Positions 7,608 through 16,847 of a stretch of DNA of 64,000 bases are shown here, piece by piece. The position numbers and the translations under genes were made by a program. The notes under the pieces were generated by a model. That model saw only the letters and a list, made by a program, of their open reading frames with translations. It had not been told where the DNA came from and searched no databases. Each line of letters begins with the position of its first letter. Position 1 is the first letter of the stretch. Source of the DNA: an uncultured Erysipelotrichaceae bacterium (GTDB lineage Bacteria > Bacillota_I > Bacilli_A > Erysipelotrichales > Erysipelotrichaceae). Location: assembly GCA_902775735.1 (NCBI GenBank), contig CACYNH010000004.1:1-64000 (forward strand). Reading direction: 5' to 3'.

Positions 7608-8965
7608 ATGCAGAATGATTTCGGTACCGGGAAAATCTGGAAGATCATCCTGGCCCAGTCGGTGCCGCTGATGTTCGCCCAGCTTGTGCATCTTCTGTAC
7701 AACGTGGTGGACAGAATTTATATCGGCCACCTGGAAGGCATCGGCTCCCTGGCTCTGACCGGCATCGGCCTGGCCTTTCCTCTGACCACGCTCATCGCGG
7801 CTTTTACAAACCTGTTCGCGACCGGCGGGGCGCCGTTATTCGCGATCGCAAGAGGCGAGGGCAATGAAGAAAGGGCAGGGACGATTCTCTCCCAGGTCTT
7901 CGGGGATCTGCTTTTCACAAGCGTGATCCTGTTCCTGCTCAGCTGGTTTTTCCGCAAGCCGATTACGCCTTCGGCGCATCCGACACGTCCTATGTCTACG
8001 CTGACCAGTATCTGAGAATCTATCTCTGGGGAACGCTGGCGGCGATGCTGGCGACGGGACTCAACGGCTTCATCAACGCTTCCGGCTATCCGAAGATCGG
8101 CATGATGACCGTGTTCCTGGGCGCTTTTCTGAATCTGATCCTGGATCCGGTCTTCATCTTCGTGTTCCATATGAATGTGGCCGGGGCGGCGCTTGCGACC
8201 GTCATTTCCCAGATCGCTTCGGCCGTCTGGGCGGTCAGTTTCTTCACCGGCACTAACGCGGTCTACCGGATCGACTTCACAAAGATTCTTCCCGATTTCG
8301 GGCTGTTAAGGGAAATCATCCCGATCGGTCTGGCCGGCTTTGTCGTCCAGGGCACCAACGCCACCGTTCAGATTGTATGCAACCGTGTGCTGAGACAGTA
8401 CGGCGGCGATCTCTATGTCGGCATCATGACCGTCATCAACTCCGTCCGTGAGATCCTCTCACTGCCGGTCCAGTCGCTCTCCAACGGCACCCAGCCGGTG
8501 CTCTCCTATAACTACGGCGCGAAGAAATACAGCCGCATCAAAGAAGGCATCCGCGTTTCGACAATCGCCGGATTTATCTATACGGCGCTTGCCTGGGCGG
8601 CAGTGCTGCTGTTCCCGCGTCAGCTCTTCAGCATCTTTACAAGCTCAGAGGAAATGATCGAGGCCGGCACCCCGGCGCTCAACATGTACTTCTTCGGCTT
8701 TATCTTCATGACCTTCCAGTTCTCCGGCCAGTCGGCCTTCACGGCCCTCAAGTGCTCCAAACGGGCGGTCTTCTTCTCGATCTTCCGCAAGGTCATTATC
8801 GTCGTTCCCCTGACCATTCTTCTGCCGAAGATGGGATACGGGGTCAACGGCGTCTGGATGGCGGAGCCGGTATCCAACCTGATCGGAGGGCTGGCCGCAT
8901 TCACCACAATGTATCTGACCCTTTACAGAAAACTCCCCGCCGACGGGGAAACCGCCCACATTTGA
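7608..8965 (+). pseudogene. MATE-family efflux transporter, frameshifted
   Basis: Two reading frames together give one MATE protein of about 452 residues. The first frame (7608-8015) encodes the N-terminus from MQNDFGTGKIWKIILAQSVP through LSWFFRKPI, then runs into unrelated residues. The family sequence continues in another frame from about 7961 as DYAFGASDTSYVYADQYLR and on to 8965. A gain of one base or loss of two near 7959-7966 explains it. RBS GGAAGGAGG precedes the ATG. Codon usage and conservation on both sides look intact, so the event is recent or is a sequencing error. Confidence 0.85.
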
Positions 8966-11139: not shown

Positions 11140-12248
11140 TCAGTCCTGAATGAGGATTGTGCTTTCCAGCAGTGACAGATCAAATGCGCTCATTCCGCCG
11201 GAAAGAAGATACGCCCGGGCGTACGGGACAAGATCTGCATTCTTCAGATCAATTGATTCATCGGTGACAATGCAGCGGATCAGCTGGATGAAGTTGTTGT
11301 CTTCAATGGTTTTGTATTTCTCAGGATCGCTTTTTTCCGTGATGCGGTAGAAACTTTCGTACGTCCGCATATAATCCTCCAGCATTTCCTGATACGCAGC
11401 GCCTGCCAGCATTTCCAGCAGAAGGCTCACAAAGCCCGACCTGTCCTTTCCTAAAGAGCAGTGAAGAAGATAAGGTCCCTCATACCGGATCATTTCGTTC
11501 AGAGAGCGGGCGATCTTTGTCTGAATCTCAGGCGTTTCAAAGCGATGGATATTTCAGGAAAGAGAACCTTTCCTTCCTCATAAAGCTTTTTGTAACATGG
11601 AGAATCCGATGTTTCCAGAAGCTCCTGAAGTTTCTCTTCAGAATCTGCCAGGTTCACAATACAGCGGATGCCGTATTTCTCACAGAGCTCGTCCGCGTAC
11701 TTTGCCCGCTGCCATGTATTGTCTATGGGAGAGGAGGAGCGGAACAGAAGATTCTCTTTGAGACTTCCTCCTTTCAAAGGGCGGAAGGAGGCGAAGATCT
11801 CATCGTTTTCAAAAGCGTCCCTGTCATTGAGCGGATTCAGGTTTCTTTCCTTTTTCTTCGAGGGAGACGGACGCGGTGTCTTCCTCACTGAGATCATATA
11901 TGACCCAGATGTCGTCATCGCTGTTTCTGACCGCCTTGATATAAGGATAGTCCGGATAGCCGATCAGCAGCGGTTCGCCCCTGGCAACGTAATAGCATTG
12001 AAAAAAGGAAGATCCTCCAGAACCGTGCCGTTGGAGAATTCCACCCGGACAGAGTCGCCGAACGCATAGCCTTTTCCGGAAAATCATCAATGGAGATATG
12101 CAGATACGCGCCGCCGAATTCTGTTTCGTGTTCAATGCTGAGGCCTGTAAGTGCCGCCGCCTCTTCATGCGCGCAGGCGGACATGCAGAGGACGGTGGAC
12201 GCCACAGAAAACCCCGGTGATGATGTGTTTAATCATTTTCATGTTCAT
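11140..12248 (-). pseudogene. Secreted tyrosine-protein phosphatase, decayed by multiple frameshifts
   Basis: Fragments in several frames, in the right order on the minus strand, make up one exported tyrosine/dual-specificity phosphatase. They are a signal-peptide start MNMKMIKHIITGVFCG (12248), a frame-shifted cysteine site SACAHEE, the N-terminal beta domain with GEPLLIGYPDYPYIKA and EEDTASVSLEEKGK, then the phosphatase domain with ENDEIFASFRPLKGG, NLLFRSSSPIDN and GIRCIVNLADSEEK, and the P-loop HCSLGKDRSGF (C-x5-R intact). At least four frame changes are needed (near 12200, 12030-12080, 11840 and 11520-11550). The catalytic loop is intact but cannot be made as one protein. Confidence 0.88.
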
Positions 12249-12363: not shown

Positions 12364-12388
12364 AAGAAAAAACCGGCGTTTCAGCCGG
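12364..12388 (-). terminator. Intrinsic terminator of proB
   Basis: On the minus strand GCCGGC, TGAAAC loop, GCCGGT then TTTTTTCTTTC; it overlaps the proB stop. Confidence 0.8.
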
Positions 12389-13175
12389 CAATGAATCTTG
12401 TTCCGACGGATTTTCCTTCCATCAGGTCATAAAGAAGAGTGGGATTGGATCCGTTGATGACATATGTGTCGATGCCCTGGGCAGTGGCGAGGTCCGCCGC
12501 CTGCAGCTTGGTGCGCATGCCGCCGGTGCCTCTGCGGCTGCCGGCGCCTCCGGCCAGCTCATAGGTTTCATCGGTGATTTCCCTGATCTCGCCGATCAGC
12601 TTCGCGTTTTTGTAAAGGCGGGGGTCGCGGTCATAGAAACCGTCGATATCGGAAAGGATGATCAGTCTGTCGGCTCTGCACAGGATGGAGACAACCGCGC
12701 TTAACATGTCGTTGTCGCCGAACAGTTTCTCTTCGGATTCGATTTCGGTATAGCTGACCGAGTCGTTTTCATTGACGATCGGGATCACGCTCTGCTCCAG
12801 CAAAGCCTCGAATGTATTGGCAAGGTTTTCTTTTTTGACTTCCTGGCGGATGTCTTCCGCGTTAAGAAGGATCTGGGCCACGGTCTTGCCGTATTCGCCG
12901 AAGAATTTGTCATACAGGAACATGTTTTCACACTGGCCGACCGCCGCCGCTGCCTGCTTCATGCGCATTTCAGTCGGTTTGCCGGGCAGATGCATTTTAT
13001 TGGCGCCGACCGCGATGGCGCCGGAAGAGACGAGGATAACCTCGTTTCCCATGTTCTGGATATCCGCGAGAACCCGGGCCAGGATTTCAATCCGGCGCAG
13101 GTTTGAACAGCCGTTTTCATTTGTCAGTGTGGATGTGCCGACTTTGACGACAATCCTGTTTTTCCGCTGGGACAT
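12381..13175 (-). CDS. proB: Glutamate 5-kinase
   Basis: Phosphorylates glutamate to gamma-glutamyl phosphate, the first step of proline synthesis, in the cytoplasm. The 264 residues cover only the amino-acid kinase domain: VVKVGTSTLT near the N-terminus, VSSGAIAVGANKM, the glutamate-site NENDSVSYTEI, FGDNDMLSAVV and the phosphate-binding GTGGMRTKLQAA. The C-terminal PUA domain of longer ProB proteins (about 370 residues) is absent, as in several short Bacillota versions. It stands alone: proA is not in view. GAGGT lies nine bases before the ATG. Confidence 0.95.
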   Translation of the reverse strand: MSQRKNRIVVKVGTSTLTNENGCSNLRRIEILARVLADIQNMGNEVILVSSGAIAVGANKMHLPGKPTEMRMKQAAAAVGQCENMFLYDKFFGEYGKTVAQILLNAEDIRQEVKKENLANTFEALLEQSVIPIVNENDSVSYTEIESEEKLFGDNDMLSAVVSILCRADRLIILSDIDGFYDRDPRLYKNAKLIGEIREITDETYELAGGAGSRRGTGGMRTKLQAADLATAQGIDTYVINGSNPTLLYDLMEGKSVGTRFIAG

Positions 13176-13252
13176 AATACAGTACCTCGTTCACATTGCT
13201 TAGATTTTAGCATACTCACAGGCCTTAAACGTAACAAATGAGCCGGTCATGG

Positions 13253-13264
13253 TAAGATAGTGGC
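13253..13264 (+). promoter_or_regulatory. Extended -10 box six bases before the start codon
   Basis: TGG-TAAGAT (extended -10, hexamer 13253-13258) is followed by only six bases (AGTGGC) and the ATG at 13265, with no Shine-Dalgarno sequence. Transcription from it would begin at or next to the ATG. Confidence 0.5.
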
Positions 13265-14323
13265 ATGCGTAAAATACTCTATGCGATACATTTTAACCAC
13301 GGCGGCGATACCGCGCTGTACATGAACACTTTTAAAGAAAGGGGCTGGACAGTTGTCACGGCTGCCAGTGAACAGCTGCTTTTAAGGGCGGACGCGGTTC
13401 TTTTATACGCGGATGAATATCTTCTCACCGAAGAGGAAAAACAGTTTCTGACCACAGCTTCACAGCGCAGGATCCCGGTGGCCGTCATCCATTACCCGCT
13501 TCTGGATGAGGAAGTCAAAGGCATCCTTGAAGCGGCGGAAGTGATCCGCTGTGATGAAATCAGCTTTGAACAGCTGGACACCCTGATCCGTGAGCGCCAG
13601 CAGGACATCTATGTCAGAAAAGAAGAGCCGGTGAAGAGCCCGGGATGGATCAACGCTCTGTTTCTGATTGTTTCCGCATTCTTACTGTGCTTTATTCTCT
13701 GGAAGCTCTATGACATCTCCAGGGACAGAGCGGTTCATGAGCAGAGTGAAACGGAAGTTCTTGAGGAAAAGGTCAGACAGGCGGTGGTGAAGGTCTATTC
13801 GCTGAGCTCATTCGGCACCGAGGCCTGGCGGGGCAGCGGATTTGCGGTGAGCACGGAGGGCTACATTGTCACCAACGCCCATGTCGTCGAGCACGCCTCC
13901 GTCAGCTACCGTGTGGTTTACCGTGAACAGACTTACGACGCGGAAGTGGTTTCAGTTTCGGAAACACAGGACATCGCTCTGATCAAAGTGAACCAGCCGC
14001 TCAGGAACATTCTTGTTTTTGAGGAGGAAAAACCGCAGGAAGGGGAAACGGTCTGGGCACTCGGCTATCCGGGCGATCAGAAACTCACAATGCTGGAAGG
14101 AACCTACAACGGCGTGCAGGCGGTCTACACAGGCGGCCTGACATATACCGGGATCACGATGCCTTTAAGGCAGGGCATCTCAGGTTCGCCTGTGGTCAAT
14201 GCGAAAGGGAAGGTGGTCGGCATCGCTTCGGCGGTTTCTCTGACTGATGAAAACAAAGCCTGGATGGTGGACAGCGCCACCGCCCTGCAGTTTCTGAAGG
14301 ACTGGCTGTTCCTTCAGAAATAA
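13265..14323 (+). CDS. Membrane-anchored trypsin-like (HtrA/S1C) protease with Rossmann/TIR-like N-terminus
   Basis: A 352-residue fusion. Residues 1-115 look like an alpha/beta domain with the alternating pattern RADAVLLYADEYLLTEEEKQ and RIPVAVIHYPLLDEE, similar in layout to TIR or flavodoxin-like domains. A membrane helix follows near 130-148 (ALFLIVSAFLLCFILWKL). The C-terminal protease domain (165-350) carries the triad: His in VTNAHVVEH, Asp in TQDIALIKV and Ser in QGISGSPVV. No PDZ domain is present. The topology implied is a cytoplasmic N-terminal domain and an external protease. The usual Ser loop GNSGGP is here GISGSP. No RBS is seen; a -10 box lies six bases upstream, suggesting a leaderless mRNA. 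Confidence 0.8.
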   Translation: MRKILYAIHFNHGGDTALYMNTFKERGWTVVTAASEQLLLRADAVLLYADEYLLTEEEKQFLTTASQRRIPVAVIHYPLLDEEVKGILEAAEVIRCDEISFEQLDTLIRERQQDIYVRKEEPVKSPGWINALFLIVSAFLLCFILWKLYDISRDRAVHEQSETEVLEEKVRQAVVKVYSLSSFGTEAWRGSGFAVSTEGYIVTNAHVVEHASVSYRVVYREQTYDAEVVSVSETQDIALIKVNQPLRNILVFEEEKPQEGETVWALGYPGDQKLTMLEGTYNGVQAVYTGGLTYTGITMPLRQGISGSPVVNAKGKVVGIASAVSLTDENKAWMVDSATALQFLKDWLFLQK

Positions 14324-15456: not shown

Positions 15457-15482
15457 GAAGAAAAGCGTTTCAAATGTATAAT
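15455..15482 (+). promoter_or_regulatory. Promoter of the DAC-domain gene
   Basis: -35 TTGAAG (15455-15460), 16-bp spacer, -10 TATAAT (15477-15482). It overlaps the preceding terminator's T-run and shows that the upstream ATG at 15474 cannot be the start, so translation begins at 15510. Confidence 0.75.
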
Positions 15483-15509
15483 GATGTTGACAGGAAAGAG
15501 AAAAACCAT

Positions 15510-16847
15510 ATGGAAAATAATTACTGGATCACTCTGGCGCAGGATGAAACGTCAGCGCCCGAAGACACGTTTCTGCGCATCAGAGAGCTTTACAATAACC
15601 TGCTGAAACATCTCTATGACAATCCCCGCGACATCCCGGATTTCAGGATCCATTTTTCGACGGTTCAGATGAGCGAGGAGGAGGGGCTCAACAACGGCTA
15701 CCATGTCGCGACCCTGACAAGACGCTCCCGGGAAATCGCCGAAAGCGTCATCCACAATGTCACTGAAATTCCCAATTTCGAAAATTCCTACACCTGGTAT
15801 CAGGACAACATCTTCGTGATCTTCGACTACTGCGGATCGGGAATCAATCCTCTGCAGTTTGTCACAAGAGCCTTCTGGGAAGAGGTCTACAAGCAGCTGT
15901 ACTTCTACGGCATCCGCCGGGTTTCCATCGGCCACATGTATGACCTGATCATTTCCGGCGGAATGGTCGAATTCTTCTATGGCTTCTATCATCTCGACCT
16001 CAATTTCCTGCAGAACCTCTCCGCCGAAACCTATGAAAAGAAATACGCCGACTCCCGCGTCATCGTTCCCCGCAACGGCACCAGAGCCGGCAAGCGGACA
16101 CTCAAGCAGGGACTGCAGGTCGCCTTCAGCGAACCGGTTGCCTTCGCACCGGAAAACCACCGGCAGATCCGCAAGCTGCTTGAGCTTTCCAACGACACGC
16201 TGGCGCTGATCGTCGATGAAACCGGCAAGGTCAGGGGCTTAAGCGACAAGCGCGCCTTCCCCAACGAATGCGAAATCAAGATCAAGGGACACCTTTCCTG
16301 GCGCATCGCCTATGAAGGAGACAGGAAGCTTTCCTACCACAACGCCCGCTACCACATCAATGTCGAGAGAAAGGCGGACGTCGATGTGTCGGATATCATG
16401 AAATCGGTCGACCCGATGCTGTCGCCGGTCGAACTGAGCAGAATCTCAAATCTCATCATTGACGCTTCCCGTCAGAAATACGGAACCATTCTGATCTTCG
16501 GAAAGAATGAGGATATCGCCGCCGAAACCGAACGGCTAACTTCGGCGAAAGTCGGCATCGGCATTTCCCCGATTTCCCTGGATCATCATAAAGAGATGCT
16601 GCCGAGCTTTGTCTCGATTGACGGAGCGCTGCTCGTGGACACCCGCTGCAGCTGCCTTTGCATCGGGGCAATTCTGGACGGCGACGCGTTAAAAGGCACC
16701 ACCGCAAGAGGCGCGCGCTTCAATTCCTCCCTCAACTACATCAGAAGAAGGGCGGAACTGGGCCAGAAGCTCACCGCCATCGTCATTTCCGAAGACGGCA
16801 CCACCGACGCCATCTATGGCGACAAGGTCACAAGGCTCAACGTCTGA
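15510..16847 (+). CDS. DisA_N/DAC-domain protein (diadenylate cyclase-like) with N-terminal sensor region
   Basis: A 445-residue cytoplasmic protein. The C-terminal third has the layout of the DisA_N (DAC) nucleotidyl-cyclase domain that makes cyclic di-AMP from two ATP: VSIDGALLVDT near residue 371 (the DGA motif) and TARGARFNSSLNYIRRRAEL near 398 (position of the RHR motif). Here the latter reads R-F-N rather than R-H-R, as in the wider DAC family with large N-terminal sensors. The first 300 residues are a mixed alpha/beta region, likely sensory, that I do not recognise. It is not CdaA (no membrane helices) nor DisA (no helix-hairpin-helix). Cyclase activity is therefore inferred, not shown. 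A weak RBS (AGGAAAG) precedes the ATG. Confidence 0.75.
   Translation: MENNYWITLAQDETSAPEDTFLRIRELYNNLLKHLYDNPRDIPDFRIHFSTVQMSEEEGLNNGYHVATLTRRSREIAESVIHNVTEIPNFENSYTWYQDNIFVIFDYCGSGINPLQFVTRAFWEEVYKQLYFYGIRRVSIGHMYDLIISGGMVEFFYGFYHLDLNFLQNLSAETYEKKYADSRVIVPRNGTRAGKRTLKQGLQVAFSEPVAFAPENHRQIRKLLELSNDTLALIVDETGKVRGLSDKRAFPNECEIKIKGHLSWRIAYEGDRKLSYHNARYHINVERKADVDVSDIMKSVDPMLSPVELSRISNLIIDASRQKYGTILIFGKNEDIAAETERLTSAKVGIGISPISLDHHKEMLPSFVSIDGALLVDTRCSCLCIGAILDGDALKGTTARGARFNSSLNYIRRRAELGQKLTAIVISEDGTTDAIYGDKVTRLNV

What the first reader, a model, noticed from the sequence alone, without database searches (positions are those of the whole stretch)
13265..14323. Rossmann/TIR-like domain fused through the membrane to a trypsin-like protease
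A cytoplasmic alpha/beta domain with the strand-helix spacing of TIR or flavodoxin folds is followed by one helix and an outside serine protease with an intact triad. If TIR-like, an inside nucleotide signal would control an outside protease, as in some predicted immune or stress-signalling proteins. The next genes do not look like a defence island, so the role remains open.
Basis: inference. Interest (0 to 1): 0.5.

Follow-up and report, generated by a model that had tools for sequence, protein, structure and literature searches.

The report
Membrane protease with an inside signal-like domain
A bacterium related to the gut family Erysipelotrichaceae carries a membrane-anchored protease of the HtrA/MarP sort, with its cutting half probably outside the cell and a small inside domain shaped like signalling domains but lacking their known working residues; it is a real, conserved protein with unknown target, not a demonstrated immune system.

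Summary
Window 13265-14323 (+) encodes 352 aa: a flavodoxin-like alpha/beta domain (1-115), one transmembrane helix (about 129-148) and a MarP/HtrA-type serine protease without PDZ (His206/Asp236/Ser306). I found 17 full-length members, all in one Erysipelotrichaceae genus (17 of 70 genomes); triad and architecture are kept in 17 of 17. The inside domain predicts confidently (pLDDT 86) and resembles receivers, nucleoside deoxyribosyltransferases and TIR domains about equally. No TIR catalytic Glu or receiver Asp is conserved, so "TIR" is a shape resemblance, not membership. No gene neighbour is kept in all loci and no defence island was recognised. Two unexpected features: an extended -10 box lies exactly 6 nt before ATG in 11 of 17 members, predicting a leaderless mRNA; and the protein evolves about six times faster (dN/dS) than its neighbour, yet under purifying selection. 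A gene for a DACNH-sensor, diadenylate-cyclase-like protein lies downstream in 5 of 6 syntenic loci and occurs in 17 of 17 member genomes (7 of 53 others), but shared ancestry can explain this. Best reading: envelope protease with a cytoplasmic interaction/sensor domain; a new variant of a known kind.

The parts
13250..13258 (+). extended -10 promoter box TGGTAAGAT, ending exactly 6 nt before the ATG; predicts transcription start at the A of ATG (leaderless mRNA)
   Evidence: TGnTAnnnT at 6 nt in 11 of 17 members, at 8 or 9 nt in 2 more; no SD-like word from the script's list in those 13
13265..14323 (+). complete gene, 352 aa, membrane-anchored serine protease with cytoplasmic flavodoxin-like domain
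13265..13609 (+). residues 1-115: flavodoxin-like (receiver/TIR/NDT-shaped) alpha/beta domain without recognised conserved catalytic residues; invariant Gly27 and Arg68
13649..13708 (+). transmembrane helix, residues 129-148, N-in/C-out by the positive-inside rule
13820..14320 (+). residues 186-352: MarP/HtrA-like protease domain, no PDZ
13880..13882 (+). catalytic His206 codon
   Evidence: invariant 17 of 17
13970..13972 (+). catalytic Asp236 codon
   Evidence: invariant 17 of 17
14180..14182 (+). catalytic Ser306 codon (GISGSP)
   Evidence: invariant 17 of 17
12381..13175 (-). divergent neighbour, amino-acid kinase family (ProB-like, name by eye); syntenic in 6 genomes, used as the rate comparison; not part of the system
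15474..16847 (+). downstream gene: DACNH sensor domain plus a C-terminal part with diadenylate-cyclase-like motifs; possible but unproven functional partner

Best explanation
A single-pass (type II) membrane protein. The outside domain is an active HtrA/MarP-type serine protease without PDZ that cuts cell-envelope or surface proteins. The inside domain is a flavodoxin-like module that has no recognisable catalysis of its own and works as an interaction, dimerisation or ligand-sensing domain which tunes the protease through the membrane helix. The gene stands alone and is translated from a leaderless mRNA. Shown: architecture, predicted fold class, triad, conservation, synteny and promoter-box position. 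Inferred: topology, leaderless transcription, activity. Guessed: that the inside domain regulates the outside one, and the envelope target.
For: Protease: Trypsin_2 1.2e-24, NCBIfam MarP 1.3e-25 although below that model's cut-off, best Foldseek match Rv3671c/MarP 3k6y E 6e-17, VIA Z 27.7 to HtrA1 and 26.5 to MarP; triad 17 of 17. Inside domain: confident model, receiver/TIR/NDT-like fold, most conserved positions Phe23, Gly27, Leu40, Arg68, Pro71. Selection: dN/dS about 0.26 (window-L036), 0.20 (L039-L040) and 0.08 (L042-L043) for the gene against 0.04 and 0.03 for the kinase gene in the first two pairs (ratios of the values); in those three pairs the inside domain too has dN well below dS. 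No gene cluster other than the protease is present in all 17 loci.
Against: No activity, topology or expression data. pTM of the full model is 0.54, so no coupling between domains can be read from it. The inside domain is the less conserved half (20-29% identity to the window protein in the 11 distant members against 38-45% for the protease), which would also fit a mere anchor or cap. 4 of 17 members lack the extended -10 box near ATG, and the 11 that have it at 6 nt include close relatives (L042/L043, L039/L040), so they are not 11 independent cases.
Confidence: 0.5

Rival explanations
1. The inside domain is only a folded cap that sets topology or promotes oligomerisation; the protease is a constitutive envelope housekeeping enzyme and nothing is signalled across the membrane.
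For: Lower conservation of the inside domain and of the linkers; only Met1, Gly27 and Arg68 are invariant in the domain; no partner gene kept in all loci.
Against: The domain is kept in 17 of 17 members with dN below dS, and has an invariant Arg68 that need not be structural.
Confidence: 0.3
2. The inside domain is a true TIR or TIR-derived nucleotide sensor, and the protein is an immune effector in which a nucleotide signal made inside switches on an outside protease.
For: TIR_2 profile aligns in register over 76 columns with 35% probability, above the TIR-receiver (11.5%) and TIR-GTPase (2.1%) controls; acidic position 15 in 15 of 17; SARM1 TIR at Z 9.3; fast evolution; a nucleotide-cyclase-like gene downstream whose NCBIfam match is called anti-phage, far below its cut-off.
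Against: No conserved Glu in the domain; no TIR hit in Pfam for the window protein or any of 17 inside domains, none in PADLOC for the window's inside domain; no defence genes recognised among the 9 neighbouring window proteins scanned with Pfam; a GTPase fragment scores higher than TIR.
Confidence: 0.1
3. The gene works with the downstream DACNH / diadenylate-cyclase-like protein: that enzyme makes a nucleotide that the inside domain binds.
For: Same strand and next gene in L037, L039 and L040 (gap 71 nt in L037 and 98 nt in L040 from the ORF starts), one gene further in the window and L038; present in 17 of 17 member genomes versus 7 of 53 others, Fisher p 4e-11 ignoring ancestry; DGA-type and ARGARxNS-type motifs kept.
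Against: On an rpoB tree only 3 supported independent pairs exist and the sign test cannot reach significance; the kinase-gene control behaves alike there (2.1 against 2.2 of 3 pairs), and its simple count is also skewed (16 of 17 against 25 of 53, p 5e-4). In 14 further stretches around the cyclase-like gene, 7 from genomes without and 7 from genomes with the protease gene, no protease lies beside it (some stretches are only 3 kb).
Confidence: 0.07

Closest known systems
MarP (Rv3671c), membrane serine protease of Mycobacterium tuberculosis
   Same: closest NCBIfam model and closest Foldseek structure for the protease half; trypsin-like domain on a membrane anchor and without PDZ (MarP anatomy recalled)
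   Different: MarP has several N-terminal transmembrane helices (recalled); here a soluble inside domain plus one helix; 90 bits against a cut-off of 250
HtrA/DegS/HtrA1 family
   Same: protease fold (VIA Z 25-28 in the 50 rows shown) and triad; membrane-tethered like DegS (recalled)
   Different: no PDZ domain, the protein ends with the protease domain; no such inside domain in DegS (recalled)
TIR domains (SARM1, TIR_2)
   Same: strand-helix order, size, 'ADAVLLY...R.IP' pattern; VIA Z 9.3, rmsd 3.0 over 102
   Different: no conserved Glu, no family-level match
Receiver and pseudo-receiver domains (FlrA FleQ domain, CheY-like)
   Same: best VIA match Z 11.3, rmsd 2.8 over 108
   Different: no conserved Asp after strand 3; profile probability 4.5%

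Membership tests
Trypsin-like serine protease (PF13365, HtrA/MarP-like) | family profile match above curated cut-off | tested here: met
   Trypsin_2 88.2 bits against cut-off 27.6
Trypsin-like serine protease (PF13365, HtrA/MarP-like) | His-Asp-Ser triad intact and conserved | tested here: met
   H206, D236, S306 in 17 of 17
HtrA family proper | C-terminal PDZ domain(s) (recalled) | tested here: not met
   protease domain runs to residue 349 of 352 in the fold match; no PDZ hit up to E 1
MarP family | NCBIfam NF033740 score at or above cut-off | tested here: not met
   90.2 bits against 250
MarP family | multi-pass N-terminal membrane domain (recalled) | tested here: not met
   one hydrophobic helix after a soluble domain
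TIR domain | TIR fold | tested here: inconclusive
   SARM1 TIR Z 9.3, close to receivers and NDTs
TIR domain | conserved catalytic Glu (recalled) | tested here: not met
   no Glu column is invariant or at least 90% conserved in the domain; residue 57 is Glu in 11 of 17 but lies at the helix start; judged on alignment columns, a structural superposition was not available
TIR domain | sequence-profile match to a TIR family | tested here: not met
   no TIR model among Pfam hits up to E 10 for 17 members, with HMMER's filters on; hhalign 35%
Phospho-receiver domain | conserved phospho-accepting Asp after strand 3 (recalled) | tested here: not met
   position 50 is D/N/E/S/A/R across members
Phospho-receiver domain | acidic pair right after strand 1 (recalled) | tested here: not met
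   no acidic column at residues 9-11; acidic residues are common a little later, position 12 in 11 of 17 and position 15 in 15 of 17
P-loop GTPase | Walker A / P-loop (recalled) | tested here: not met
   none in any of the 17 rows, read by eye; only a 42-column fragment aligns
Anti-phage defence system | location among defence genes, or a defence-family match of the distinguishing part | tested here: inconclusive
   window inside domain 0 PADLOC hits; the protease hits (RT-Protease_XI, LmuA, Avs1b) cover the shared trypsin part; neighbours scanned with Pfam show none, but the downstream gene has a sub-cut-off match to an NCBIfam 'anti-phage protein' model

The most novel reading that the evidence does not exclude
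An inside-out signalling pair: the DACNH/diadenylate-cyclase-like protein makes a nucleotide in response to a stress or phage cue, the flavodoxin-like inside domain binds it, and the signal passes through one helix to open an outside serine protease. It would be a nucleotide-gated surface protease.
Probability: 0.06. Interest if true: 0.8.

Novelty: new variant of a known kind. Interest (0 to 1): 0.4.

Why it matters
The protease half is ordinary; the join to this inside domain is not one that I could match to a curated family model. If the inside domain regulates the outside protease, it would be a compact inside-to-outside switch, the reverse of DegS-type sensing (recalled). The predicted, largely conserved leaderless start in a Firmicute is a second, easily testable point. 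If the inside domain is only a cap, it is a minor architectural variant.

Tried and rejected
TIR membership: rejected on the missing conserved Glu and missing profile match, while the fold resemblance stays open. Receiver: rejected on the missing phospho-site. GTPase remnant: one hit to a HydF-like G domain (L147, E 1.2e-5) among the 24 of 395 class genomes with any hit, and 67% probability over 42 columns; not followed because the P-loop half is absent. GSH-S_N (0.007) and UPF0180 (0.01) Pfam hits are weak and each seen in 1 of 17 members. Inside domain outside the genus: the single-sequence search of 315 order genomes gave 41 genomes at E up to 0.1; the 16 matches below 0.01 were all known members, and the 17th member (G043) scored 0.05 among chance hits. 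Of the 23 non-own profile hits I opened 10; none was a protease (names by eye: HydF, aminotransferase, IspG, LacI-type regulator, RNA methyltransferase, SHMT three times, PurN, GroEL). The first scan of genome contigs with one sequence found nothing.

Neighbours: the one family seen in more than one context is a MATE-type transporter (name by eye), in 10 of 17 loci (6 syntenic ones and L042, L043, L045, L048), at different positions and about 33% identical between the contexts; I take it as chance in a large family, but did not test that.

Co-occurrence with the cyclase-like gene: strong by simple count, not significant once ancestry is allowed for. My first rpoB tree was wrong: 8 rows had been translated in a wrong frame; it is discarded, and only the two Fisher tests, which do not use the tree, are quoted. 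57 of 70 genomes are in the tree; member genomes G043, G055, G060 and G078 are not, for lack of a full rpoB stretch. The cyclase-like count of 24 leaves out G039, whose match (E 8e-4) I judged spurious (25 of 70). Many genomes are incomplete, so absences are uncertain.

Papers: searches on MarP, leaderless, pseudoreceiver proteases, TIR/trypsin conflict systems, HtrA anchors, DACNH (no listed paper held that word), DS2/DisA and trypsin/Rossmann (0 papers). None described this architecture in the listings that I saw, or in the passages that I read of PMC5397173, PMC6431027 and PMC7159879.

Full report
What is there. Window 13265-14323 (+) is an intact gene of 352 residues. Residues 190-320 match Trypsin_2 (1.2e-24); the nearest NCBIfam model is MarP (1.3e-25, but 90 bits against a cut-off of 250). 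Residues 1-120, predicted alone from a 17-row alignment, give a confident alpha/beta model (pLDDT 86.2, pTM 0.79) with five strands and alternating helices. The full model has one long helix (127-157), a short one (162-171), and then the protease (pLDDT 85.1, pTM 0.54), so the relative placement of the domains is not determined. The protease half is closest to MarP in Foldseek (3k6y, E 6e-17) and to HtrA proteases in VIA-align (Z 27.7).

How real and how wide. A search of 272 genomes of the family gave 236 genomes with any match, but only 17 matches of full length, window included; all 17 lie in the window's genus, and the other matches in the (capped, best-first) list start at residue 139 or later, that is, cover only the protease side. 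The genus set holds 70 genomes. Named copies of the 16 other members are Erysipelotrichaceae or Solobacterium records, three of whose titles name goat ileum, sheep jejunum and sheep rumen. In the alignment of 17, His206, Asp236, Ser306, His210, Gly27 and Arg68 are invariant. K+R on the N side of the helix exceed the C side in 16 of 17. Identity to the window protein is 20-50% in the inside domain and 38-66% in the protease.

The inside domain. Foldseek puts receivers first (E 3e-4); VIA-align puts the FlrA FleQ domain first (Z 11.3, rmsd 2.8, 108 aligned), then 7m5h 10.6, a HemD-like protein 10.4, DNPH1 10.3, a CMP N-glycosidase 10.3, receivers 10.0, NDT 9.8 and SARM1 TIR 9.3. These differ little, and the tool warns that middling Z is common; the safe statement is a flavodoxin-like fold. 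Profile-profile comparison with segments taken from related genomes (29 GTPase, 29 receiver and 28 TIR segments, each out of 30 loci) gave probabilities of 67% (42 columns), 4.5% and 35% (76 columns); the three sets against each other gave 2.1, 0.5 and 11.5%. The TIR catalytic Glu, the receiver Asp and a P-loop (all recalled as motifs) are absent as conserved columns; an acidic residue at position 15 in 15 of 17 members does fit the TIR-like pattern.

Setting. Six genomes (window, L036-L040) share the locus beside the amino-acid kinase (ProB-like) gene; the kinase is 88-95% identical to the window's while the protease is 43-56%. The kinase search found a match in 41 of 70 genomes; all 6 genomes with a kinase at 88% or more carry the protease gene next to it. 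dN/dS (NG86; ratios computed from the printed values) is about 0.26 and 0.20 for the gene against 0.04 and 0.03 for the kinase gene in the same two pairs; for the close pair L042-L043 it is 0.08 (dS of 1.5 in the window-L036 pair is near saturation). The other 11 members lie at other places, four sharing one context (L042, L043, L045, L048) and two another (L044, L049); no cluster other than the protease itself is in all 17 loci. A MATE-type transporter family is in 10 of 17, at different positions and about 33% identical between the two contexts. The window neighbours scanned with Pfam are metabolic or unrelated, apart from the DACNH gene below. No defence island was recognised.

Leaderless start. 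TGnTAnnnT ends exactly 6 nt before ATG in 11 of 17 members and 8 or 9 nt before it in 2 more, with no SD-like word from the script's list in these 13; L044, L046, L049 and L050 lack it, and L044 and L046 have an SD-like word instead. L046 also lacks an ATG at this point (TTG assumed). Some of the 11 are close relatives. In the window this motif plus ATG at 6 nt occurs once, at this gene; in the 218,101 bases of L036-L051 it occurs at 10 members, at 4 other ORFs of 80 residues or more, and 5 times without such an ORF. Across the genome it occurs 45 times against 18 for the reversed control pattern; of the 29 places that my script printed (30 of the 45 had loci), 20, this gene included, open a frame of 130 residues or more. 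So leaderless starts look like a regular minor mode in this organism, and this family mostly keeps one. In the six syntenic loci TGnTAnnAT and the ATG are invariant within a diverged spacer. In streptococci about 9% of mRNAs are leaderless, and many are so in more than one species (PMC6431027, passages).

The downstream gene. Window 15474-16847 has a DACNH domain (2.4e-7), a sub-cut-off match to NCBIfam NF053872 'anti-phage protein' (3.9e-36, 124.5 bits against 630), and a C-terminal end with conserved IDGA (IDGG in L040) and ARGARxNS-type motifs that I read, from memory, as diadenylate-cyclase-like; Pfam gives no cyclase hit. It is the next gene after the protease in L037, L039 and L040 and one gene further in the window and L038; L036 ends too early. 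It occurs in 17 of 17 member genomes and 7 of 53 others (G039 dropped as spurious), Fisher p 4e-11 without regard to ancestry; the kinase gene as control gives 16 of 17 against 25 of 53, p 5e-4. On an rpoB tree of 57 genomes the protease needs 5 changes and the cyclase-like gene 8; only 3 supported independent pairs exist, the cyclase-like gene goes the same way in 2.2 of 3 on average and the kinase control in 2.1 of 3, so no link is demonstrated. In 14 further stretches around cyclase-like genes no protease of this family lies nearby.

How it most likely works. An outward HtrA/MarP-type protease held by one helix, with an inside domain that binds a partner or ligand. The regulatory link is a guess. 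Rivals are a passive cap, a TIR-derived sensor, and a cyclase-gated protease. Verdict: real, conserved, new variant of a known kind; moderate interest.

Noticed in passing
window 15474-16847 (+): DACNH-domain protein with a C-terminal diadenylate-cyclase-like end (IDGA, ARGARxNS), matching an NCBIfam 'anti-phage protein' model far below its cut-off; 24 of 70 genus genomes carry it (one weak hit dropped) and G000 has a second copy (C16).
   Followed up: partly
genome-wide; e.g. window 13250-13267 and loci L118, L120, L125, L126, L128, L129, L131, L132: ORFs that start exactly 6 nt after an extended -10 box (45 sites against 18 control; 20 of 29 printed sites open a long frame), including a thymidylate-kinase-like and a DEAD-box-helicase-like gene (by eye): a set of predicted leaderless genes in a Firmicute.
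   Followed up: partly
window 7608-8965 (+): MATE-type transporter gene (name by eye) is in two frames (135 and 306 aa) where five relatives have one ORF of 453-467 aa: broken gene or assembly error.
   Followed up: no
window 11140-12205 (-): Tyrosine-phosphatase-family gene (PF13350 match on 11140-11490) appears split over several frames; no match in L036-L051 by tblastn at 1e-8.
   Followed up: no
window 13176-13264: Back-to-back divergent promoters: a second conserved block (AGATT.TA.CA, an extended -10 on the minus strand by eye) faces the kinase gene.
   Followed up: partly
L052-L054, L058, L061: Lysinibacillus and Mesobacillus carry short membrane-anchored trypsin-like proteases, by eye without PDZ and with a short charged tail instead of the folded inside domain: a possible plainer relative.
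   Followed up: no
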